Part shown: piece by piece, positions 33,480 to 44,105 of the stretch
Position numbering within the stretch: the stretch's first letter is position 1
Layout of the letters: every line of letters begins with the position of its first letter
Source: Paraconexibacter algicola
Lineage (GTDB): Bacteria; Actinomycetota; Thermoleophilia; Solirubrobacterales; Solirubrobacteraceae
NCBI RefSeq assembly: GCF_003044185.1
Contig: NZ_PYYB01000001.1
Location: 930,001 to 994,000, forward strand
Reading direction: 5' to 3'
DNA: 64,000 nucleotides
Translations under genes and position numbers: made by a program
The notes under the pieces: generated by a model
Databases searched by the model: none
What the model saw: only the letters and a program-made list of their open reading frames with translations
Told to the model about the DNA's origin: nothing

Positions 33480-34310
33480 ATGGGCGTGAAGGACGTGGTG
33501 CTCCGCACCGGCGAGCTCGACGGCCGGCCCGTCGCCTGGCGGGAGGCCGAGCCCCCGGCCGGGGAGCTGCCGACCGTGTACGTCCACGGGGTCCCGACCA
33601 ACGCGGACCTGTGGCTGCCGTTCCTCGCCCGCACCGGCGGGGTCGCGCCCGACCTGCCCGGCTTCGGCCGCAGCGGCAAGCGCGGGGACGGCGACTACAC
33701 GATGGAGGGCTACGACCGCTGGCTCGAGCGGTTCCTGGAGTGGCGGGGGATCGACCGCTTCAACCTGCTCGTGCAGGACTGGGGCGGCGTCGGGCTGCTG
33801 CCCGCCATGCGCTTCCCCGAGCGCGTCGCGCGGCTCGCCGTCGTCAACGCCGTGCCGCTGCTGCCCGGCTACCGCTGGCACCGGATCGCGCGCGCGTGGC
33901 GCACCCGCGGGCTCGGGGAGATCGCGGTCGGCCTGATGGTCCGCCCGCTGCTCAAGCAGCTCTCGCGCGAGGCGCGCGCCACTCCCGGACCGATGCCCGA
34001 CGACTTCCTGGACCTCGTCTGCGACCACCTCGACCAGGGCACGCAGCGCGCGATCCTCGCGCTCTACCGCTCCAGCCCGCCCGAGAAGCTCGCGGCGGCG
34101 GGCGCCGGGCTCGGCGCGCTCGACTGCCCCGCGCACGTCTGGTGGGGGCAGGAGGACCCGTACATCCCGGCGCGGTTCGGCCCCGACTACGCGGCCGCAC
34201 TCGGGAACGCCGGGTTCACCGCCGTGCCCGGGGCCGGGCACTGGCCGTGGGTCGACCGCCCCGAGCTCGTCGACGAGATCACCGCGTTCCTGCTGGCGGA
34301 CGCGGGGTGA
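33480..34310 (+). CDS. Alpha/beta hydrolase, haloalkane dehalogenase/epoxide hydrolase-like
   Basis: 276 residues. The oxyanion-hole motif VHGVPTNADLW (about residues 33-43), nucleophile elbow VQDWGGVG with Asp as nucleophile (about residue 101), acid in WGQEDPYIP and base in GAGHWPWVDRPE are all visible. Asp in QDWGG is typical of haloalkane dehalogenases and epoxide hydrolases rather than serine esterases. Between these two the sequence does not decide. The stop overlaps the GTG of a large membrane protein by 4 bases, so the pair is coupled. The ATG is set by TATTGT 7 bases upstream. Confidence 0.88.
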   Translation: MGVKDVVLRTGELDGRPVAWREAEPPAGELPTVYVHGVPTNADLWLPFLARTGGVAPDLPGFGRSGKRGDGDYTMEGYDRWLERFLEWRGIDRFNLLVQDWGGVGLLPAMRFPERVARLAVVNAVPLLPGYRWHRIARAWRTRGLGEIAVGLMVRPLLKQLSREARATPGPMPDDFLDLVCDHLDQGTQRAILALYRSSPPEKLAAAGAGLGALDCPAHVWWGQEDPYIPARFGPDYAAALGNAGFTAVPGAGHWPWVDRPELVDEITAFLLADAG

Positions 34311-35923
34311 GCACCGCCGCCGTCCCCCGCCCGGTCCGCGTGGCCCGGGCGTCGCTGTCGCACCACCACGCCCCCTGGGTCGTCGCGGGCTTGCTCGCGC
34401 TCGTCTACGTCCTCTGGCAGCCCGCCGCGGGCGACCTGCCCGCCCAGACCTACCGGACGTGGCTGTTCGAGCACGAGGGCCCGTCGCTGTTCGACACCGC
34501 CTGGTACGGCGGCCATCACCTGCCCGGCTACTCGCTGCTGTTCCCGCCGCTGGCGTCGCTGCTCGGCGTGCAGCTCGTCGGCGGGCTGAGCGCGGTCGCC
34601 TCCGCGTGGCTGTTCGCCCGGATCGCCGAGGAGACGCTCGACGACGACGTCTGGCTCGGCTCGCTGTGGTTCGGGGTGGCGAGCGCGTCGACGCTGCTCG
34701 CCGGTCGGCTGACGTTCGCGCTCGGGATCGCGTTCGCGCTCGGCGCCGTGCTGCTCGCCGTCCGGCGCCGGCCGGCCTGGGCGACCGCCGCGGCGGTCGG
34801 CACCGCGGTCGCGAGCCCGGTCGCCGCCCTGTTCCTGGCGATGGTGCTCGGCGCCTGGTGGCTCGTGCAGCGCGACCGGCGCGACCTGCTGCTGGTCGCC
34901 GTCGTCGGCGCCGCGCCGGTCATGGCGATCAACCTGTTCTTCCCCGAGGGCGGCGGGCAGCCGATGGAGACCGGCACGTTCCTGCGCACGCTGGGCACCA
35001 CCGTCGCGATCGCGCTGCTGCTGCCGCGCGAGCGGCGGGTGCTCCGCGCGGTCACCTGGGTGTACGCGCTGGCGATCCTCGCGAGCTTCGTGATCGTCAG
35101 CCCGATGGGCTCGAACGTCACGCGGCTCGGCACGCTGTTCGCGGGCCCGGTGCTCGCCTGCGCGCTGCTGCCGCACCGCCGGGTCCTGCTCGCCGTCCTC
35201 GCCCTGCCGCTCGTGCAGTGGCAGTGGCAGGCGCCCGTGCTCGACTGGCACCGCGCGCACGACGACCCGCTCGTGCAGGCCCGCGCCTACGAGCCGGTGC
35301 TGCGCTTCCTGGACCGTCAGCGCAGCCTCGAGGGCCCGTTCCGCGTCGAGGTGCCGTTCACCCAGAACCACGTGGAGGCCGACCTCGTCGCGCGGCGTCA
35401 CCCGCTCGCGCGCGGCTGGCAGCGCCAGCTCGACACGAAGTGGAACGGGCTCTTCTACGAGGACGGCGAGCTCGAGCCCGCCGAGTACCGGCGCTGGCTG
35501 GACGAGAACGCGGTCCGCTACGTCGCGCTGCCCGAGGGCCGGCTCGACCAGACCGCGAAGGCCGAGCGACGGCTGCTGCAGCACGGCGACGTCCCCGGCC
35601 TGCGCAAGGTCCTCGACGAGGGCCGCTGGACCGTGTGGCGCGTCGAGGGTCCGACCGCGACCGCCCTCGCGACCGGCGCCGGGGCGCGCGTCACCGTCCT
35701 GGACCACGACCGCGTCGAGCTCGACGCCCCGGCCGCGGGGGACGTGCTCGTGCGGGTCCGCTTCACCCCGTACTGGCGGGTCCGCACCGGCGACGCGTGC
35801 GTCTCGCGGGACGCGGGGGACCAGCAGTGGACGCGCGTGCGGGTGCGGCGGCCCGGACCGGTGACGCTCGTGACGACGTTCTCGCCCGGCCGCGTCGGCG
35901 CGACCGGCGAGCGCTGCCCCTGA
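34307..35923 (+). CDS. Polytopic membrane protein, unknown, first of tandem paralogues
   Basis: 538 residues from a GTG overlapping the hydrolase stop. About 9-10 hydrophobic segments fill residues 25-320; the C-terminal 210 residues are soluble and probably outside. Motifs shared with the next gene include WYGGHHLPGYSL (about residue 65) between the first two helices, GRLTFALG, PMGSNVTRLGTLFAGP (about 265), EVPFT with PLARGWQRQLDT (about 350-375), and TPYWR near the end. The arrangement of a large first periplasmic loop, many helices and an external C-domain recalls GT-C glycosyltransferases, but I find no catalytic DD/DE pair I can trust. Function unknown. Confidence 0.8.
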   Translation: MSTAAVPRPVRVARASLSHHHAPWVVAGLLALVYVLWQPAAGDLPAQTYRTWLFEHEGPSLFDTAWYGGHHLPGYSLLFPPLASLLGVQLVGGLSAVASAWLFARIAEETLDDDVWLGSLWFGVASASTLLAGRLTFALGIAFALGAVLLAVRRRPAWATAAAVGTAVASPVAALFLAMVLGAWWLVQRDRRDLLLVAVVGAAPVMAINLFFPEGGGQPMETGTFLRTLGTTVAIALLLPRERRVLRAVTWVYALAILASFVIVSPMGSNVTRLGTLFAGPVLACALLPHRRVLLAVLALPLVQWQWQAPVLDWHRAHDDPLVQARAYEPVLRFLDRQRSLEGPFRVEVPFTQNHVEADLVARRHPLARGWQRQLDTKWNGLFYEDGELEPAEYRRWLDENAVRYVALPEGRLDQTAKAERRLLQHGDVPGLRKVLDEGRWTVWRVEGPTATALATGAGARVTVLDHDRVELDAPAAGDVLVRVRFTPYWRVRTGDACVSRDAGDQQWTRVRVRRPGPVTLVTTFSPGRVGATGERCP

Positions 35924-35987
35924 ACGCCAGCCCGCGGTCACGGCTCGTTCACCGCGCCCGTCCGCCGGTGCGCCACCGTGGGCGGCG

Positions 35988-37571
35988 ATGGCGACGGTCC
36001 TGCGCACCCCCGTCCGCGTCCCGGCCTGGCTGCTCGCCGCGATCGGCGCGACGCTCTGGCTGCTGCTCGCGCCGCGCACCCCGGACCTCGCCGCGCAGGT
36101 CTTCCGCGCGGGCCTGTGGGCCAGCGACGGCTTCGAGGTCTGGAACGGCAACTGGTACGGCGGCCACCACCTCCCCGGCTACAGCCTGACGTTCCCGCCG
36201 CTGGGCGCCTGGTTCGGCCCGCGCGTCGTCGGCGCGGTGGCCGCCGTCGCCTCCGCGGTGCTGTTCGACCGGCTCGCCCGCGCGCACGTCGGCGACCGTG
36301 CGCGCTGGGGCGTCGCGTGGTTCGCCGCCGCCACCACCTGCGACCTGCTGATCGGCCGGCTGACGTTCGGGCTCGGCGTCGCCGTCGGACTCGGCGCGCT
36401 GCTGGCGCTGCAGCGCGACCGGCCGCGCACGGCGGCCGCCCTGGCCGTCGTCTGCGCGGCGACGAGCCCGGTCGCCGGGGCGTTCCTCGCCCTGGCCGGA
36501 TCCGCCGTCGCGCTGACCGCCCCGGCACGGCGGGCCGGCCTGGCGCTCGTCGCCGCCGCGGGCGCGACCATCGCGGTGCTCGTCGTCGCGTTCCCGGAGG
36601 GCGGCCGCCAGCCGATGTCGCTCGGGGCGGTCTGCGCGATCGCCGGGTTCTCGCTCGCGCTCGCGGTCCTGCTGCCCGCGCGCGAGCGGACCCTGCGGGT
36701 CGGGGCGCTGCTCTACCTGCTCGCCGGGCTCGCCGCGTTCCTCGTCGCGACCCCGATGGGCAGCAACGTCGCGCGGCTCGGCGCGACGTTCGCCGGGCCG
36801 CTGCTGATCATCGCCGCGTGGTCGCCGCACGCCGCGCGGTGGCGGCGGGCGGCGATCGTGGCGCTCGCCGTGGGGATGGCCGCCTGGCAGTGGCTCGCAC
36901 CGGTCCGGGAGGTCGCCAAGGGCGCGGGCGACCCGTCGACCTCGGCCGCGTACCACGCCCCGGTCGCCGCGTTCATCGCCGCGCAGGGCGGACCGCTCGG
37001 GCGCGTCGAGGTGCCGTTCACGCGCGGGCACTGGGAGGCCGTCCACCTGGGCCGCCGCCTGCCGCTGGCGCGCGGCTGGGAGACCCAGCTCGACACGCGC
37101 TACAACCCGCTCTTCTACGACGGCACGATCGACGCGCGCAGCTACCGCGCGTGGCTGCGACGCACCGCCGTCCGCTGGGTCGCGGTGCCCGACGCGCCGC
37201 TGGACCCGTCCGGCCGCGCGGAGGCGGCGCTCGTTGCGCAGGGCCTGCCGTACCTGCGGCGCGCGTGGTCGGACGCGCACTGGGTCATCTACGAGGTCCG
37301 CGACCCGGCGCCCCTGGCCCGCGGTCCCGCCGAGGTCGTGCGCCTGGACCGCGACGAGGTGGTGCTCGACGTGCGGGCGGTCGCCCCGATCGTGCTGGCG
37401 GTGCACCACACGCCGTACTGGCGGGCCGACCAGCCGGGCGCCTGCGTCGGGCCGCAGGGCCGCTGGACCCGGGTCGTGCCGACCCGCCCGGGCCGCCTGA
37501 CGCTGCGCGCGAGCTTCGCCCCGGACCGCATCCTGCGCCGCGACGCGCGGTGCACCCCGCGCGCCCCCTGA
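35988..37571 (+). CDS. Polytopic membrane protein, unknown, second of tandem paralogues
   Basis: 527 residues, clearly a paralogue of the gene 64 bases upstream: NWYGGHHLPGYSLTFPPLG, GRLTFGLG, TPMGSNVARLGATFAGP, EVPFTRGHWEAVH, PLARGWETQLDT, NPLFYDGTID and HHTPYWR align in the same order and spacing. About 9-10 membrane helices precede a soluble C-terminal part. Sequence between the motifs has diverged strongly, so the duplication is old, and the conserved blocks mark likely functional sites. CACCGT ends 8 bases before the ATG. No family is recognised. Confidence 0.8.
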   Translation: MATVLRTPVRVPAWLLAAIGATLWLLLAPRTPDLAAQVFRAGLWASDGFEVWNGNWYGGHHLPGYSLTFPPLGAWFGPRVVGAVAAVASAVLFDRLARAHVGDRARWGVAWFAAATTCDLLIGRLTFGLGVAVGLGALLALQRDRPRTAAALAVVCAATSPVAGAFLALAGSAVALTAPARRAGLALVAAAGATIAVLVVAFPEGGRQPMSLGAVCAIAGFSLALAVLLPARERTLRVGALLYLLAGLAAFLVATPMGSNVARLGATFAGPLLIIAAWSPHAARWRRAAIVALAVGMAAWQWLAPVREVAKGAGDPSTSAAYHAPVAAFIAAQGGPLGRVEVPFTRGHWEAVHLGRRLPLARGWETQLDTRYNPLFYDGTIDARSYRAWLRRTAVRWVAVPDAPLDPSGRAEAALVAQGLPYLRRAWSDAHWVIYEVRDPAPLARGPAEVVRLDRDEVVLDVRAVAPIVLAVHHTPYWRADQPGACVGPQGRWTRVVPTRPGRLTLRASFAPDRILRRDARCTPRAP

Positions 37572-37646: not shown

Positions 37647-38465
37647 ATGCTCGTCCGCGTCCTCGACTACCGGACGCGACTGTTCCCCAGGGGCGTCCTC
37701 GACGTCGCGGTGCAGGTCGCGATCTTCTTCGCCATGTACTACGCGTACAGGATGCTTCGCGGCGCCATCGACAACCCCGAGGGGGCCGCGGTCGCGTTCG
37801 AGAACGCGCGCAACCTCATCGACATCGAGCGGTCGCTCGGGCTGTTCGTCGAGCCGAGCATGCAGGCGTGGGCGTCGGGCACCGGCTTCCTCGTGGACGC
37901 CGCCAGCGCGATCTACGTCAACGCCCAGACCTCGGTCACCGTCGGCGCCCTCGCCTACCTGTACCTCCGCCACAACGCGCACTTCTACTTCGTGCGCAAC
38001 ATGTTCTTCTTCGCGTTCCTCTGCGCGATCGCGGGCTACGTGCTGTACCCGACCGCGCCGCCGCGGTTCTTCCCCGAGTGGGGCTTCTTCGACGCGGTCG
38101 CGGAGTTCAGCGGGATCTCGAGCACCGACCCGTCGCTGGTCAACAAGCTCTACAACCCGTACGCCGCGGTGCCGTCGATGCACATCGCGTTCGCGCTGAT
38201 GATCGGCATCCCGCTCGCGAAGCTCGTGAAGTGGCGCGTGCTGAAGGTGTTCTGGGCCACGTACCCGGTCATGGTGCTGTTCGTCATCGTCGTGACCGGC
38301 AACCACTTCCTCGCCGACGCGTTCCTCGGCGCGGTCGCGGCGGTCGTCGCCGCGCTCTGCGCCCGGACGGTCTCGCGGATCCGCCCGGACCGCTGGGGAT
38401 GGGGCCCGGCCGCGCCGGCCGGCCCGCCCACCACGCCGCCGGCCCCGGCCGCGGCGACCGCCTGA
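37647..38465 (+). CDS. PAP2_3-type membrane phosphatase/inositolphosphotransferase
   Basis: 272 residues, about six membrane helices. The core matches the PAP2 superfamily branch that includes Aur1/Ipt1-like inositolphosphotransferases: the motif YAAVPSMHIAFAL (about residues 171-183) and VTGNHFLADAFLG (about 211-223) supply the two histidines and the aspartate of the active site. The C-terminal 30 residues are a Pro/Ala tail. Such enzymes remove or transfer a phosphate group on a lipid at the outer membrane face. It lies directly ahead of a phosphatidyltransferase gene (40 bases), so a common lipid pathway is plausible. TAGTCT lies 11 bases before the ATG. Confidence 0.87.
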   Translation: MLVRVLDYRTRLFPRGVLDVAVQVAIFFAMYYAYRMLRGAIDNPEGAAVAFENARNLIDIERSLGLFVEPSMQAWASGTGFLVDAASAIYVNAQTSVTVGALAYLYLRHNAHFYFVRNMFFFAFLCAIAGYVLYPTAPPRFFPEWGFFDAVAEFSGISSTDPSLVNKLYNPYAAVPSMHIAFALMIGIPLAKLVKWRVLKVFWATYPVMVLFVIVVTGNHFLADAFLGAVAAVVAALCARTVSRIRPDRWGWGPAAPAGPPTTPPAPAAATA

Positions 38466-38505: not shown

Positions 38506-39108
38506 ATGAGCACGCCGACCCCGCGCGGTCAGCGCCGCGAGATGACGCGCAACGCGCTCATCGAGTCGCGCCTGACGCCCAACGCGATCTCGCTCACCGG
38601 TCTGGCCCTCCACTTCGTGGCGGCCGCCGTCCTGTGGAACGGCCACTTCGTGGCCGGCGGCATCGCGTTCATCATCGGCTCGGTCTGCGACACCCTCGAC
38701 GGGCGCTACGCGCGCATGTCGGGCAAGGGGTCGCCGTTCGGGGCGTTCCTGGACTCGACGCTCGACCGCGTCGAGGAGGCGATCATCCTCACGGTCGTCG
38801 CCCGGTACTTCGCCCAGCAGGGCGACGACGCCGCTGTCGTGGGCTGCGTCGTGGCGGTCGCCGGGTCGCTGCTGGTGAGCTACACGCGCGCCCGCGCGGA
38901 GGCGCTCGGGGTGGAGTGCAAGGTCGGCTTCGCGAACCGCGCCGTGCGCGTCGTGATCCTCTCCGTCGGCCTGCTGTTCGCCACCGGTCCGGGGGACGTC
39001 GAGCTGCTCGCTCCCGCCGTGTACGTGCTCGCGGCGATGTCGCTCGTGACGACCCTGCAGCGCATCTTCCACGTGCGCGGCCAGCTGATCGCCGCCAAGA
39101 CCTCCTGA
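38506..39108 (+). CDS. CDP-alcohol phosphatidyltransferase (PgsA/PIP-synthase type)
   Basis: 200 residues, about six helices. The full active-site signature D-x2-D-G-x2-A-R-x8-G-x3-D-x3-D is present (CDTLDGRYARMSGKG, then FGAFLDSTLDR; about residues 64-90). These enzymes transfer a phosphatidyl group from CDP-diacylglycerol to an alcohol. The start RREMTRNALIESRLTPNAIS resembles actinobacterial phosphatidylinositol-phosphate synthases more than glycerol-phosphate enzymes, but that assignment is tentative. TACCCT ends 10 bases before the ATG. A strong hairpin follows the stop, so this is probably the last gene of its transcript. Confidence 0.9.
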   Translation: MSTPTPRGQRREMTRNALIESRLTPNAISLTGLALHFVAAAVLWNGHFVAGGIAFIIGSVCDTLDGRYARMSGKGSPFGAFLDSTLDRVEEAIILTVVARYFAQQGDDAAVVGCVVAVAGSLLVSYTRARAEALGVECKVGFANRAVRVVILSVGLLFATGPGDVELLAPAVYVLAAMSLVTTLQRIFHVRGQLIAAKTS

Positions 39109-39216: not shown

Positions 39217-41205
39217 GTGAGCGACCGCCGGCGCATCGACATCCTGGACCGCGCAGGCCTCGCCGTCCGCGCGCCCGACGAGGACCCCGACATCGCGGTC
39301 CGCGTCATCAGCCTGCGGTTCCTCATGGTCGTCCGCATCGTCGGGCTGGCGGTCACGATCGCCGCCGGAGCGCTCGGGGACCCGCAGGCGGCCTACTGGG
39401 TCGTTGCCGCGGTCGCGCTCGCCGCGCAGCTGGCCAGCGCGCGCGTCGCGTTCTCCGCCCGCTGGGAGCGGACGTCGGAGCACCTCGTGCCGCTGCTCGG
39501 CCTGAGCCTCGTCAGCGGGCTCGTGCTGACCTCCGGGGGCGCCGCGAGCCCCGCCGCGCACGTCGCGATCGCCTTCCCCGCCATCGGCGCGTTCATCCTC
39601 GGCCGGGTCCGCGTCCTGGCCTCGTGCGCGGTCGTCTTCGTCGCGCTCGCCGTCCCGGTCCTCCCCGACGTGCTCGCCGGCGAGCCGGGCGCCGGGCGCA
39701 CGGCGGTCGGGCTGCTGTGCGGCCTCGGCTTCGCCGCGGCCGTCGCCGTCGCGATCGCCGCCGGGCGCACGATCCTCGGCGAGCGGCTCGCCGACCTCTA
39801 CCGCGAGCGCCGACTGCTCCTCGTCGACGAGCTCGCCACGGCGGCGACCGAGCGCCGCCGCATCTCTGCGGAGCTCGGCGCCGGACCGCTCCAGCTGCTG
39901 CTCGCCGCCAAGCAGGACCTCGAGGAGCTCGCCGAGCCCGGCGGCGACGAGGCCGCGGCCCGCACCCGGAGCGCCGCCACCCTCCACGACGCGGCCCGGC
40001 TGCTGCGCGCGACGATCGTCGCCCTGCGCGAGCCACGCGCAGGCGCCGACCCGCCGGAGGACGCCGCGCCGATGTCCGACCCGCAGATCGCCGGCCGGCT
40101 GCTCGCGATCGTCCAGCTCGTCGCCGTCCCGACCTTCGGCGCCGCGACCATCGTGGGCGCCGCCGACGGCGGCGAGCTCGGTCCGGCGATCGCGCTCGTC
40201 GGCCTCGTCGCGGTGGTCCAGCTCACCGTCCTCGCCGTCGCGTTCGGTCCGCACTGGGACCGACTCCCGCAGACTGCGGTCGCGGTCGCCTGCACGCTCG
40301 CCGTCGCGACGGCGACCGCCCTGAGCGGTGGGGCGCAGTCCCCCGTGCTGATCCCCGCGGCCGTCCTGCCGATGAGCTTCCTGCTGCTCGGACCGGGCAC
40401 GGTGCAGGCACCGGTCGCCGGCGCGCTCGTCGTCGGCCTGGCGGCCACGATCCTCCCCGACGTCGCGCAGGGCGAGCCGGGAGCCGGCGTCGCGATGGCC
40501 GTGACCGCCATGGCCCTCGTCTGGACCGGCCTCGCGGCCTTCGTCGGCACGCTGGGCCGCCAGCGCCTCGAGCAGCGCACCGCGCGCCTGGAGACGGCCC
40601 GCCGCACCCTGCTGCGCGACTCCGTCGCCGTCCAGGAGCGCGAGCGCGGCGCCGTCGCGCGGGCGCTGCACGACGACGTGCTGCAGCTCGTGCTCGCAGC
40701 GGCGCAGGAGACCGCCGAGCCGGACCCGGACGCCCCGGCGCGGGCCCTCGCCCACACCACCGCGGCCGTCGCCGCGCTGCGCGAGGGCGCCGACGCGCTG
40801 CACCCCTCCGCACTCGAGCACGGCGGCCTGGCCCCGGCGCTGCGGGACATCGCGGCGCGGGCCGCGCGCCTCGGCGGCCCGACCCCGAGGGTGCGGGTGG
40901 CCGACGGGGTCGCCGCCCGCCATCACGAGCTCGTCGTCGGCGTCGCCCGCGAGCTGCTGACGAACGTCGCGAAGCACGCCTCGGCCACCGGCGCGACCGT
41001 CGAGGTCACCCCGGACGGCCCCGCGGTCGCCCTCGTCGTCACCGACGACGGCTGCGGCATGCCGCCCGCCCGGCCGCAGCGCGCCCTCGAGTCCGGACAC
41101 GTCGGCCTGGCGTCCTGCCGCGAGCAGGTCGAGGCGGCCGGCGGGACGGTCGAGCTGCGCTCGGCGCCCGGCGAGGGCACGACCGTCCGGGTGTGGCTCC
41201 CGTAG
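39217..41205 (+). CDS. Sensor histidine kinase with internally duplicated module
   Basis: 662 residues. The second half is a NarL-type kinase: membrane sensor (about 295-455), dimerisation helix ERERGAVARALHDDVLQLVL with phospho-acceptor H485, and an ATPase domain with ELLTNVAKHAS (N box), TDDGCGM and GEGTTVRVWLP. The first half repeats the same plan: five or six helices (about 30-190) and a dimerisation-like helix ERRRISAELGAGPLQLLL, but glycine (G221) stands where histidine should be and no ATPase domain follows. Both halves share GEPGAG before a helix (about residues 155 and 424), which supports duplication. No response regulator is adjacent; the partner must lie elsewhere. Confidence 0.88.
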   Translation: MSDRRRIDILDRAGLAVRAPDEDPDIAVRVISLRFLMVVRIVGLAVTIAAGALGDPQAAYWVVAAVALAAQLASARVAFSARWERTSEHLVPLLGLSLVSGLVLTSGGAASPAAHVAIAFPAIGAFILGRVRVLASCAVVFVALAVPVLPDVLAGEPGAGRTAVGLLCGLGFAAAVAVAIAAGRTILGERLADLYRERRLLLVDELATAATERRRISAELGAGPLQLLLAAKQDLEELAEPGGDEAAARTRSAATLHDAARLLRATIVALREPRAGADPPEDAAPMSDPQIAGRLLAIVQLVAVPTFGAATIVGAADGGELGPAIALVGLVAVVQLTVLAVAFGPHWDRLPQTAVAVACTLAVATATALSGGAQSPVLIPAAVLPMSFLLLGPGTVQAPVAGALVVGLAATILPDVAQGEPGAGVAMAVTAMALVWTGLAAFVGTLGRQRLEQRTARLETARRTLLRDSVAVQERERGAVARALHDDVLQLVLAAAQETAEPDPDAPARALAHTTAAVAALREGADALHPSALEHGGLAPALRDIAARAARLGGPTPRVRVADGVAARHHELVVGVARELLTNVAKHASATGATVEVTPDGPAVALVVTDDGCGMPPARPQRALESGHVGLASCREQVEAAGGTVELRSAPGEGTTVRVWLP

Positions 41206-41236: not shown

Positions 41237-43171
41237 GTGTCCGTCCCGCGCCTGACGATCGCCCACGTGACGCCGTACCCGTGGGACGGTGACGGCCCGG
41301 ACACGACGCCCGGCGCGGCCGGCGAGGTCGGCCGCGCGGTCGCCCGGACCACCGCCCTGCTCGCGCGGCGCGGGCACCGCGTGCTCGTCGTCGCGCCGTC
41401 CACGTCGGCAGCCGCCGTGCGGACCACCCGCCGGGCGATCCGCGCCGGCGAGCTGTTCGCGCAGGACGGCACCGTCGCCGTCGCGGCGGTCGGCGAGGTC
41501 CTCACCGCGCCCGGCCCGGTGCGGCGCAGCCCCGGCCTGCCGGTCGACGTGGCCCGCACCGTCGAGGAGCTGCTCGGCTCCGTGTCGCTGGACATCTGCC
41601 ATGTGCACGAGCCGTTCGCCCCGTCGGTGCCGAGCGTCGCGCTGCGCCACTCGCGCGCGCTGAACGTCGGCACGTTCCACGCGCCGACCGAGCGGCACGT
41701 CGCCACGCAGGTGACGAAGAAGCTCGTCGAGCGGGTCTTCGGTCGCCTCGACGCGCGCCTGGCGAGCTTCCAGGCCACCGCCGAGCTGATGGGCCGCCAC
41801 TTCCCCGGCCGCTACGAGGTCGTGCACCCCGGGGCGGACCCGGCGCCCGCCGGCGCCACGCCGCGCGCGACGTACGCGGGCGCCCCGGTGCGGCTGCTGT
41901 TCGTCGACGAGGAGGAGCGCGGGGCCCTGCGGCTGTTCCTGCGCGCCCTGCGGCGGCTGGACACCGGGGAGCTCGCCGCCCCGTGGGAGGCCGTCGTCGT
42001 CAGCGCCCGCGGCCCGTCCTCCTCCACCCCGCTGCGGCACGAGCTGCGCGAGCGCGTCCGCTTCGTCGGGGGCGCCGAGGCCGACGCCGAGCTCGCCGCC
42101 GCGCACGTGCTCGTGTGCGCCAGCGACGGCGGCGCGCCGGCCCCCGGACTGCTGCTGCGCGGCCTCGCCGCGGGAGCGGTGCCGGTCGCGTCGCGCCTGC
42201 CCGCCTACGAGGAGCTCACCGAGGACGGCGCGGGCCTGCTGTTCGAGCCGCGCGACGTCGACACGCTCGCGGCGCAGCTGCAGCGGCTCGTGTCCGACGC
42301 CGCGCTGCTCGCCCGCGTCCGCGGCGCCGGGCAGGAGCTGCGCGACCGCAGCGGCTGGGAGCGGGTCACCGACGACCTCGAGCGCGTCTACGGGGCGGTC
42401 GTCGCCCGCCGCCACGACACCACCGGGGACCCGGAGATCCGTCGGCGCCTGCAGTCGCGGCCGCTGATCGACGTCGACCTGCACATGCACACCGACCACT
42501 CGCACGACTGCGCGACCCCGGTGGAGGTGCTGCTCGCCACCGCCCGCGACCAGGGCCTCGGCGCGATCGCCGTCACCGACCACAACGAGATCTCCGGCGC
42601 GCTCGACGCCGCCGAGAAGTGCGCCGAGTACGGCGTGAAGGTGATCGTGGCGGAGGAGGTCAAGACCGCCAACCAGGGCGAGGTGATCGGCCTCTTCCTG
42701 ACCGAGAAGATCCCGCGCGGCCTGACGCTCGAGGAGACCGTCGCGGAGATCAAGCGCCAGGGCGGGCTCGTGTACGTGCCGCACCCGTTCGACCGCATGC
42801 ACGCCGTGCCCGACTACGAGCACCTGCTGACGATCGTCGACGACGTCGACGCGCTCGAGATCTTCAACCCGCGCGTCGCGATCGGCTCCTTCAACGAGGA
42901 GGCCGAGCGGTTCGCGGCCAAGTACCGCATCGTCGCGGCGGCGGGCTCGGACTCGCACGTCGCGCAGGGTCTCGGGACCGTCCGGATCCGGATGCGCGAC
43001 TTCGACGGGCCGCAGGAGTTCCTGGAGTCGCTGCGCGACGCCGAGATCCACACCCGGCGCGGCACGCTGCTGTACGTGCAGGCGCTGAAGTTCCTCGAGA
43101 CGAAGGCCACGCCGCCCGCGGCGCGCAAGGCCCGCCGGGCGCGCCGCGTCGAGCGCGCCCGCCGCAGCTGA
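41237..43171 (+). CDS. GT4 glycosyltransferase fused to PHP-domain phosphoesterase
   Basis: 644 residues. Residues 1-395 form a GT-B fold of family GT4: Gly-rich N-terminal loop, HVHEPFAPSVPSVAL, FHAPTE near residue 150, and RFVGG ... LVCASDGGAPAPGLLLRGLAAGAVPVAS (the E-x7-E region, here altered; about 275-320). Residues about 408-620 form a PHP domain with metal-binding motifs DLHMHTDHSHD, VTDHNEIS, PHPFDRMH and GSDSHVAQGLG, all intact. The tail is very basic (ARKARRARRVERARRS). PHP domains cleave phosphoesters. A natural reading is a glycolipid or sugar-phosphate enzyme that couples transfer and dephosphorylation, but the substrate is unknown. Confidence 0.9.
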   Translation: MSVPRLTIAHVTPYPWDGDGPDTTPGAAGEVGRAVARTTALLARRGHRVLVVAPSTSAAAVRTTRRAIRAGELFAQDGTVAVAAVGEVLTAPGPVRRSPGLPVDVARTVEELLGSVSLDICHVHEPFAPSVPSVALRHSRALNVGTFHAPTERHVATQVTKKLVERVFGRLDARLASFQATAELMGRHFPGRYEVVHPGADPAPAGATPRATYAGAPVRLLFVDEEERGALRLFLRALRRLDTGELAAPWEAVVVSARGPSSSTPLRHELRERVRFVGGAEADAELAAAHVLVCASDGGAPAPGLLLRGLAAGAVPVASRLPAYEELTEDGAGLLFEPRDVDTLAAQLQRLVSDAALLARVRGAGQELRDRSGWERVTDDLERVYGAVVARRHDTTGDPEIRRRLQSRPLIDVDLHMHTDHSHDCATPVEVLLATARDQGLGAIAVTDHNEISGALDAAEKCAEYGVKVIVAEEVKTANQGEVIGLFLTEKIPRGLTLEETVAEIKRQGGLVYVPHPFDRMHAVPDYEHLLTIVDDVDALEIFNPRVAIGSFNEEAERFAAKYRIVAAAGSDSHVAQGLGTVRIRMRDFDGPQEFLESLRDAEIHTRRGTLLYVQALKFLETKATPPAARKARRARRVERARRS

Positions 43172-43241: not shown

Positions 43242-44105
43242 ATGACCCGTCTGCGCCGTTCCCTCGCCGTCCTGCCGCTGCTCGCGACCGCCGCCGTCGC
43301 GCTCGCGGGCCCGACCAGTCCCGCGCAGGCCGCGGATCCCCCGCGCTACAAGCTCTACTACGACCTCTTCGACCGTGGCGGCGCGAAGATCCCCGGGCAC
43401 GACACCTCCTGGGTGCCGCAGGGGCTCGCGTACTGGTCCGAGCAGGACGCGCTCGTGATCTCGTACTACGACGGGAACGAGAAGCAGAAGAGCCGCATCG
43501 CGATCATCGACCGGAACACCGGCGCCAAGCGCAAGATCCTCGTGCTCCCCCGCAAGGGTCACGCGGGCGGCATCGGGTTCACCAAGCGGTACCTGTGGGT
43601 CACCCAGGACGGCATCGTCTACCGCGTCCGCAAGAGCGAGCTCGCGAAGCCCGAGATGTCGACGGTGAAGCTCGACGAGGACTGGCCCGTCTCGGCCTCG
43701 TCGTTCATGACCATCGCCGGCGACCGGATGTGGCTCGGGCAGTTCCGCGAGAACGCCAACGGCACCACCTGGGAGTACCGCTTCGCGAAGGGCGGCGTCC
43801 CGGTCCGCACGGGCCGCAACATGATCAACCCCCCGCAGGTCCAGGGCATGGTCATCACCGGCGGCAAGGTCGTCTGGAGCCGCTCCTACGGGCGCGACAA
43901 CGACAGCCGCATCGACGTCCACGCGCTCGGGTCGACGTTCGGCCGGCCGCTGCGCTCGATCCTCGCCCCGAACATGTCCGAGGGCATGGTCATCGCCCGC
44001 GGGGAGCTGCGCGTCGTCTACGAGTCGGGCTCCTCGACGTACAGCGACGCCGACTACCGCGTGCGCACCGTGCACCGCGCCCCGATCGGGCGCATCGTCG
44101 GCTGA
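43242..44105 (+). CDS. Secreted protein, propeller-like, unknown
   Basis: 287 residues. A clear signal peptide (MTRLRR, hydrophobic SLAVLPLLATAAVALAG, cleavage near AQA-AD at about residue 30). The mature protein repeats short strand patterns (GLAYWSEQDALVISYYDG, GGIGFTKRYLWVTQDGIVY, VQGMVITGGKVVWSRSYG), as in beta-propeller proteins. I do not recognise a family. The ATG is chosen because the signal peptide starts there and AAGGA lies 7 bases upstream, so this gene has a leader and Shine-Dalgarno sequence. Confidence 0.78.
   Translation: MTRLRRSLAVLPLLATAAVALAGPTSPAQAADPPRYKLYYDLFDRGGAKIPGHDTSWVPQGLAYWSEQDALVISYYDGNEKQKSRIAIIDRNTGAKRKILVLPRKGHAGGIGFTKRYLWVTQDGIVYRVRKSELAKPEMSTVKLDEDWPVSASSFMTIAGDRMWLGQFRENANGTTWEYRFAKGGVPVRTGRNMINPPQVQGMVITGGKVVWSRSYGRDNDSRIDVHALGSTFGRPLRSILAPNMSEGMVIARGELRVVYESGSSTYSDADYRVRTVHRAPIGRIVG

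What the first reader, a model, noticed from the sequence alone, without database searches (positions are those of the whole stretch)
34307..37571. Tandem paralogous membrane proteins with invariant motifs and no known family
Both proteins keep WYGGHHLPGYS, GRLTFxLG, PMGSNVxRLGxxFAGP, EVPFT, PLARGWxxQLDT and TPYWR in the same order although the rest has diverged strongly. Strict conservation of His, Arg and Tyr in outside loops suggests catalysis or ligand binding, perhaps a GT-C type enzyme. The first is co-translated with an alpha/beta hydrolase.
Basis: seen in the sequence. Interest (0 to 1): 0.55.

Follow-up and report, generated by a model that had tools for sequence, protein, structure and literature searches.

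The report
New sugar-transferase family, inositol lipid operon
Two neighbouring genes of a soil-type actinobacterium encode membrane enzymes that most likely hang sugars on inositol-containing membrane lipids; the protein fold is known, but the family has no name yet.

Summary
Window 34307-35923 and 35988-37571 encode tandem paralogues (43% identical) that share all six motifs in order. Twenty-six residues are invariant in 81 relatives. No Pfam or NCBIfam model reaches its cut-off. An AlphaFold2 model (pLDDT 94.8, pTM 0.92) has the GT-C glycosyltransferase fold: best matches are AftD, STT3/AglB, ArnT, ALG12/ALG9 and Pmt4. An Asp at the tip of the first juxtamembrane helix (D43/D33), the catalytic position of GT-C_A enzymes, is kept in 80 of 81 rows (the other is truncated). 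All 26 invariant residues fall on the outer side of the predicted topology.

In 59 of the 79 best relatives the gene sits beside a PAP2-type gene, mostly with genes for phosphatidylinositol-phosphate synthase, inositol-phosphate synthase and a GT4 glycosyltransferase: an inositol-phospholipid operon. Phosphatidylinositol is the reported main polar lipid of Conexibacter woesei.

Best reading: a new sequence family of GT-C_A transferases that add polyprenyl-phosphate-linked sugar (perhaps mannose) to the inositol lipid head group. Donor, acceptor and activity are inferred, not shown. Tandem duplication is the exception, and the distant relatives examined (Streptomyces-like, Frankia) lack the operon.

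The parts
33480..34310 (+). alpha/beta hydrolase (ABH), first gene of the operon; stop overlaps the GTG start of the first GT-C gene
   Evidence: Pfam Abhydrolase_1 E 9.1e-19; overlap seen; related ABH hits in 43 of 79 related loci, mostly just upstream
34307..35923 (+). GT-C family protein 1 (538 aa): 11 TM helices, STT3/AglB-like alpha/beta domain, C-terminal beta-sandwich
   Evidence: AlphaFold2 pLDDT 94.8; Foldseek AftD E 2e-6; VIA Z up to 13.5
34433..34435 (+). codon of D43, predicted catalytic Asp at the tip of juxtamembrane helix 1
   Evidence: D in 80 of 81 rows, the other a gap; helix 44-57 follows TM1 17-37
35273..35647 (+). extracytoplasmic alpha/beta domain of protein 1 (residues 323-447)
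   Evidence: VIA match to AglB C-terminal globular domain 3vu0_C, Z 8.7, rmsd 2.9, 115 aligned
35648..35920 (+). C-terminal beta-sandwich of protein 1 (residues 448-538)
   Evidence: folded alone pLDDT 93.2; weak matches, Z about 6, to AftD and carbohydrate-enzyme C-terminal domains; no Foldseek match at E 0.001
35988..37571 (+). GT-C family protein 2 (527 aa), tandem paralogue; predicted catalytic D33 at 36084-36086
   Evidence: 43% identical to protein 1; carries all 26 family-invariant residues (row of A3)
37647..38465 (+). PAP2_3-type membrane phosphatase/phosphotransferase, candidate phosphatidylinositol-phosphate phosphatase
   Evidence: PF14378 E 1e-37; PAP2 present in 59 of 79 related loci
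38506..39108 (+). CDP-alcohol phosphatidyltransferase, PI-phosphate-synthase-like
   Evidence: PF01066 E 2.4e-17; NCBIfam PIPSynth 129 bits, cut-off 170; D1xxD2G..AR..G..D3xxxD4 motif plus the Arg after D4 (PgsA1 R94, ino-P enzymes); these Asp and that Arg in 54 of 54
39217..41205 (+). sensor-kinase-like gene standing where most relatives have ino1
   Evidence: PF02518 E 4.1e-16; only one weak hit (L122, 31% over 106 aa) in the 99 loci L032-L130
41237..43171 (+). GT4 glycosyltransferase fused to a PHP phosphoesterase domain, end of the conserved block
   Evidence: PF13439, PF13692, PF02811; 41 of 79 related loci

Best explanation
Both proteins are glycosyltransferases of the GT-C_A fold class and found a sequence family without a name in Pfam or NCBIfam. 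They sit in the cytoplasmic membrane, take a sugar from a polyprenyl-phosphate carrier on the outer face, and transfer it to the head group of an inositol phospholipid or a glycolipid built on it; D43 (protein 1) or D33 (protein 2) acts as catalytic base and the two extracytoplasmic domains hold the acceptor. Their operon supplies the acceptor: inositol-phosphate synthase (in this genome ino1 has left the operon), PI-phosphate synthase, a PAP2-type PIP phosphatase, and a GT4 enzyme that would add the first sugar inside. Shown here: sequence family, predicted fold, position and conservation of the Asp, operon conservation. Inferred: activity, outer-face site, lipid-linked donor, inositol-lipid acceptor, the roles of PAP2 and GT4, and that the two paralogues make different linkages. 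Mannose is the likeliest sugar, by analogy with PI mannosides.
For: AlphaFold2 pLDDT 94.8, pTM 0.92 from 81 sequences. Foldseek: AftD E 2e-6, STT3 from 7.6e-5, ArnT 3.3e-4, ALG12 4.5e-4, all prob 1.00. VIA: Pmt4 Z 13.5 (280 aligned), yeast STT3 13.3 (406), AftD 12.9 (462, model 16-527), PimE 7.4. Asp at the tip of juxtamembrane helix 1 in 80 of 81 rows, the place of the catalytic Asp of GT-C_A enzymes (passages of PMC12041299 and PMC12041525). All 26 invariant residues on the outer side. Operon: of 79 loci, PAP2 in 59, CDP-alcohol phosphatidyltransferase in 57, ino1 in 56, ABH in 43, GT4-PHP in 41. The CDP-AP has the four Asp and the Arg typical of inositol-phosphate users in 54 of 54. The own genome has ino1 elsewhere and several GT2 genes resembling polyprenyl-phosphate-sugar synthases. 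PI is the main polar lipid of Conexibacter woesei (PMC3035278 passage); PI and PI mannosides in a Solirubrobacter strain (PMC10722151 passage).
Against: No biochemical evidence. 15 of 79 loci with at least 2.5 kb downstream lack the operon, and none of the 14 loci from outside the order (L111-L122, L124, L125) has it, so the family is not tied to inositol lipids everywhere. The 79 were the best of 374 relatives, which favours close kin. Profile comparison finds no kinship with AftD (prob 0.6) or GT87/PimE (prob 2.1), so the sugar cannot be carried over. The window's own operon lacks ino1. The PIPSynth and INO1 NCBIfam models are matched below their cut-offs. The Solirubrobacter paper's formal species description lists neither PI nor PI mannosides.
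Confidence: 0.6

Rival explanations
1. GT-C_A transferase of AftD type that adds pentofuranose (arabinose or ribose) to a cell-wall glycan; the operon neighbours are unrelated to its acceptor, or the PAP2 protein dephosphorylates polyprenyl-phosphoribose-phosphate.
For: AftD is the best Foldseek match, and AftD and EmbB are the rows with Z above 10 whose alignment runs from the TM part into the C-terminal beta domain; the C-terminal domain alone ties AftD at Z 6.0. The own genome has a true AftD homologue elsewhere.
Against: Decaprenyl-phosphate phosphoribosyltransferase (NF008978; full role name recalled) is not found in the own genome and passes its cut-off in 3 of 21 genomes, own included, though 19 of those 21 hold the GT-C family. 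Emb arabinosyltransferases: 0 of 21. hhalign with AftD prob 0.6. No phosphoribosyltransferase was among the labelled conserved neighbours.
Confidence: 0.15
2. GT-C transferase acting on other acceptors (secreted proteins, another lipid or a surface polysaccharide), the operon neighbourhood being co-regulation of envelope genes.
For: Members in Streptomyces-like, Frankia and other genomes lie in mixed contexts; several best fold matches are protein glycosyltransferases.
Against: The order ABH-GTC-PAP2-CDPPT-INO1-GT4PHP or a close variant recurs in records titled Solirubrobacteraceae, Thermoleophilaceae, Conexibacter and Paraconexibacter, mostly with single-copy members.
Confidence: 0.2
3. Catalytically dead GT-C-fold protein that serves as a lipid-binding or structural partner, as PIG-U does in the GPI transamidase (role of PIG-U recalled).
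For: GPI-transamidase chains U (8imx_U, 7w72_U) are among the fold matches, Z 9.7-9.8.
Against: The Asp at the catalytic position and many charged or aromatic outer residues are conserved in both paralogues and throughout the family.
Confidence: 0.05

Closest known systems
AftD, mycobacterial arabinofuranosyltransferase (PF11847; PDB 6w98, 6wbx, 6wby)
   Same: GT-C_A fold; TM core, soluble domain and beta-sandwich aligned in order; best Foldseek match
   Different: No significant profile similarity; far smaller (538 aa against chains of 1250-1312 residues modelled); an AftD homologue is present separately in the own genome; no phosphoribosyltransferase for its donor found there
PimE, PI-mannoside mannosyltransferase (GT87, PF09594; PDB 9dm5)
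   Same: Proposed role: polyprenyl-phosphate-sugar-dependent glycosylation of inositol lipids on the outer face; catalytic Asp at the tip of JM1 (passages of PMC12041525)
   Different: No GT87 profile match in 81 members, hhalign prob 2.1; VIA Z only 7.4; the PimE chain is much shorter (383 residues modelled)
STT3/AglB/PglB oligosaccharyltransferases
   Same: GT-C_A core plus C-terminal globular domain; the AglB soluble domain matches residues 323-447, Z 8.7
   Different: About 10% identity; no oligosaccharyltransferase profile match in 81 members; different gene context
Bacteroides thetaiotaomicron inositol-lipid cluster BT_1522-BT_1526 (PMC9246714, passages)
   Same: inositol-phosphate synthase and PIP synthase encoded together with further lipid steps
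   Different: There the PIP phosphatase is phosphatidylglycerophosphatase A-like; the passages read name no GT-C gene in the cluster

Membership tests
GT-C_A glycosyltransferases | Seven-TM GT-C core with juxtamembrane helices | tested here: met
   AlphaFold2 model and fold searches; a prediction, not a solved structure
GT-C_A glycosyltransferases | Catalytic Asp at the tip of juxtamembrane helix 1 | tested here: met
   D43 just before helix 44-57, D in 80 of 81 rows, the other a gap; rule from passages. Position and conservation only; catalysis not tested
GT-C_A glycosyltransferases | Transfer of sugar from a polyprenyl-phosphate donor | not testable with these tools
   needs an assay
AftD (PF11847) | Match to the family profile | tested here: not met
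   no PF11847 match at E 0.1 in 81 members; hhalign prob 0.6
AftD (PF11847) | Decaprenyl-phosphate-arabinose donor pathway in the genome | tested here: inconclusive
   NF008978 not found in G000, which is 95.57% complete; one enzyme of the pathway tested
PimE / GT87 (PF09594) | Match to the family profile | tested here: not met
   no PF09594 match at E 0.1 in 81 members; hhalign prob 2.1
PimE / GT87 (PF09594) | Mannosylates PI mannosides | not testable with these tools
   needs lipid analysis
Emb arabinosyltransferases (PF04602) | Match to the family profile | tested here: not met
   no PF04602 match at E 0.1 in 81 members
PI-phosphate synthase (neighbour 38506-39108) | CDP-AP motif and Arg after the fourth Asp | tested here: met
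   present in the window protein; four Asp and the Arg in 54 of 54
PI-phosphate synthase (neighbour 38506-39108) | NCBIfam PIPSynth curated cut-off | tested here: not met
   129.3 bits against 170

The most novel reading that the evidence does not exclude
The two paralogues found a new glycosyltransferase family that carries out successive outer-face steps of a PI-mannoside-like pathway in Thermoleophilia, the analogue of the steps tentatively assigned to PimC/PimD and of the unknown last mannosyltransferase of mycobacteria; the operon (hydrolase, GT-C x1-2, PAP2, PIP synthase, Ino1, GT4-PHP) is a largely self-contained inositol-glycolipid pathway with its own enzymes, and the duplication in one lineage added a second linkage.
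Probability: 0.3. Interest if true: 0.65.

Novelty: new member of a known kind. Interest (0 to 1): 0.45.

Why it matters
It proposes a function for a family present in most sampled genomes of a common actinobacterial order (53 of 61 genomes, own included) and points to an inositol-lipid operon there. Inositol glycolipids are best known from mycobacteria (recalled), where some mannosylation steps are only tentatively assigned and one enzyme is unknown (PMC12041525 passage). A second lineage with its own enzymes would show whether the pathway arose once, and would give a non-pathogenic system to study it.

Tried and rejected
Sequence search against solved structures: nothing below E 0.1, with one protein or with the profile. 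PHROGs: nothing. NCBIfam AZOBR_p60025 (E 0.0027, 17 bits against a cut-off of 150; 2 of 81 members) and Pfam PTPS_related (1 of 81, E 0.018) are too weak to use. Plasmid collection: two distant hits (Embleya, Streptomyces), one annotated hypothetical protein, one without annotation.

Search for residues that distinguish the two paralogue clades gave only mild changes (D313/E308, S99 against A, and the mostly-Pro column at 227); no specificity site stands out. The C-terminal domain has no convincing fold match on its own. Literature searches for Thermoleophilia with phosphatidylinositol and glycolipid found none; Solirubrobacterales with glycosyltransferase and phosphatidylinositol found one unrelated paper (listing only). 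So I did not find this operon in print, but only looked for it or for its lipids, in one open-licence library.

The first ino1 search of the own genome (TIGR03450) found none and suggested a missing pathway; the Pfam model then found an ino1 elsewhere on the same contig, so that idea was dropped.

Full report
What is there. The window holds two tandem ORFs, 34307-35923 and 35988-37571, on the + strand. They are 43% identical over their length and are the only members of the family found in their genome (95.57% complete). The six motifs of the finding occur once in each, in the same order. For the pair alone the clumping of identical positions is modest (longest run 12, reached in 41 of 5000 shuffles). 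Across 81 sequences 26 columns are invariant, which is the real support. The upstream alpha/beta hydrolase ends in GTGA, overlapping the GTG start.

Known family? None reached a cut-off in Pfam or NCBIfam for either protein, and no family matched more than two of the 81 members even at E 0.1; PHROGs gave nothing; sequence search against solved structures gave nothing below E 0.1.

Fold. AlphaFold2 on the 81-row alignment gave pLDDT 94.8 and pTM 0.92. Foldseek found 7 matches at E 0.001 or better, all GT-C enzymes: AftD, STT3 (four entries), ArnT and ALG12. VIA-align gave Z 13.5 to Pmt4 (280 aligned, rmsd 4.2), 13.3 to yeast STT3 (406, 5.3), 12.9 to AftD (462, 6.2) and 7.4 to PimE. The tool warns that helical bundles can reach Z 13 by chance, so I lean on the agreement of both programs, on the long run of GT-C proteins in the list, and on the separate match of residues 323-447 to the AglB soluble domain (Z 8.7, rmsd 2.9). 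The last 91 residues form a beta-sandwich (pLDDT 93.2 alone) with only weak matches (Z 6.0 to AftD and to a chondroitin lyase).

Active site. The model has TM1 at 17-37 and a helix at 44-57; D43 stands at its tip and is Asp in 80 of 81 rows, the remaining row being cut short. Passages in PMC12041299 and PMC12041525 place the catalytic Asp of GT-C_A enzymes there. With the N-terminus inside, all 26 invariant residues fall in outer loops, outer helix halves or the outer domains; of 39 nearly invariant ones 32 do. Coordinates were not at hand, so this is topology, not geometry.

Context. Among the 79 best relatives in genome contigs, PAP2 genes are near the GT-C gene in 59, the CDP-alcohol phosphatidyltransferase in 57, ino1 in 56, the hydrolase in 43 and the GT4-PHP gene in 41; 15 with at least 2.5 kb downstream have none of the PAP2, CDP-AP or ino1 genes, and 5 are cut too short to tell. 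The profiles used to label these genes were built from the same loci; the clustering that defined them was by BLAST. The CDP-AP carries the class motif and the Arg that follows the fourth Asp in inositol-phosphate users; the four Asp and the Arg are in 54 of 54 (rule from PMC6506517 passages). The window's own operon has a sensor-kinase-like gene where ino1 stands in most relatives; one relative (L123) has neither between the same neighbours. Both genomes hold another ino1 elsewhere on the same contig. The chemistry fits: PI is the main polar lipid of Conexibacter woesei (PMC3035278 passage), and PI and PI mannosides are reported for a Solirubrobacter strain (PMC10722151 passage). The same paper's formal species description omits both lipids, so that point is not clean.

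Spread and duplication. 53 of 61 genomes (own included) have the family. In a phylum survey 24 of 246 genomes had it: 9 of the own order (own included), 5 of the class, 10 beyond, of which 8 in one genus with large genomes; named hits include Streptomyces and Embleya, Frankia and Protofrankia. Of 80 loci (79 plus the window) 8 hold a tandem pair. In the tree, first copies and second copies fall on opposite sides of a branch (support 99), so the pairs are best read as one old duplication and not as repeated recent ones; the tree is a quick one and single-copy rows lie on both sides. Outside the order the operon is not seen (14 loci); in two Streptomyces-like loci the gene lies end to end with a PAP2 gene, which in the one that I scanned is a GT87-PAP2_3 fusion, a curious echo but not an operon.

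Which sugar? AftD is the nearest structure but not a sequence relative (hhalign prob 0.6); the same holds for GT87 (prob 2.1). The phosphoribosyltransferase that begins decaprenyl-phosphate-arabinose synthesis is not found in the own genome and passes its cut-off in 3 of 21 genomes, Emb proteins in 0 of 21, while 19 of these 21 hold the GT-C family. So arabinose is unlikely as the general donor sugar. Several GT2 genes of the own genome resemble polyprenyl-phosphate-sugar synthases, none above a curated cut-off (7 of 31 matches scanned, as fragments). Mannose is my guess from the PI mannosides.

Verdict. A real, widespread, unnamed GT-C family in an inositol-lipid operon. The fold class is well supported, the pathway moderately, the sugar and linkage not at all.

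Noticed in passing
window 39217-41205: A sensor-kinase-like gene stands in the operon where most relatives have ino1; only one weak hit to it in 99 related loci. An ino1 gene lies elsewhere on the same contig.
   Followed up: partly
window 41237-43171: GT4 glycosyltransferase fused to a PHP phosphoesterase domain, conserved at the end of the operon; role unknown.
   Followed up: no
window 33480-34310: The alpha/beta hydrolase has an Asp in the nucleophile elbow (QDWGG), as in haloalkane dehalogenases and epoxide hydrolases (class rule recalled); its substrate in a lipid operon is unclear.
   Followed up: no
L113:4055-6028: A 658-residue protein with GT87 and PAP2_3 domains fused, end to end with a GT-C family gene in a large-genome actinomycete.
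   Followed up: partly
L062: Record titled Bifidobacterium breve, but its operon and tree place fit Solirubrobacterales; probably a mislabelled metagenome bin.
   Followed up: no
window 43242-44105: An ORF of 287 aa after the GT4-PHP gene without any Pfam or NCBIfam match at the thresholds used.
   Followed up: no
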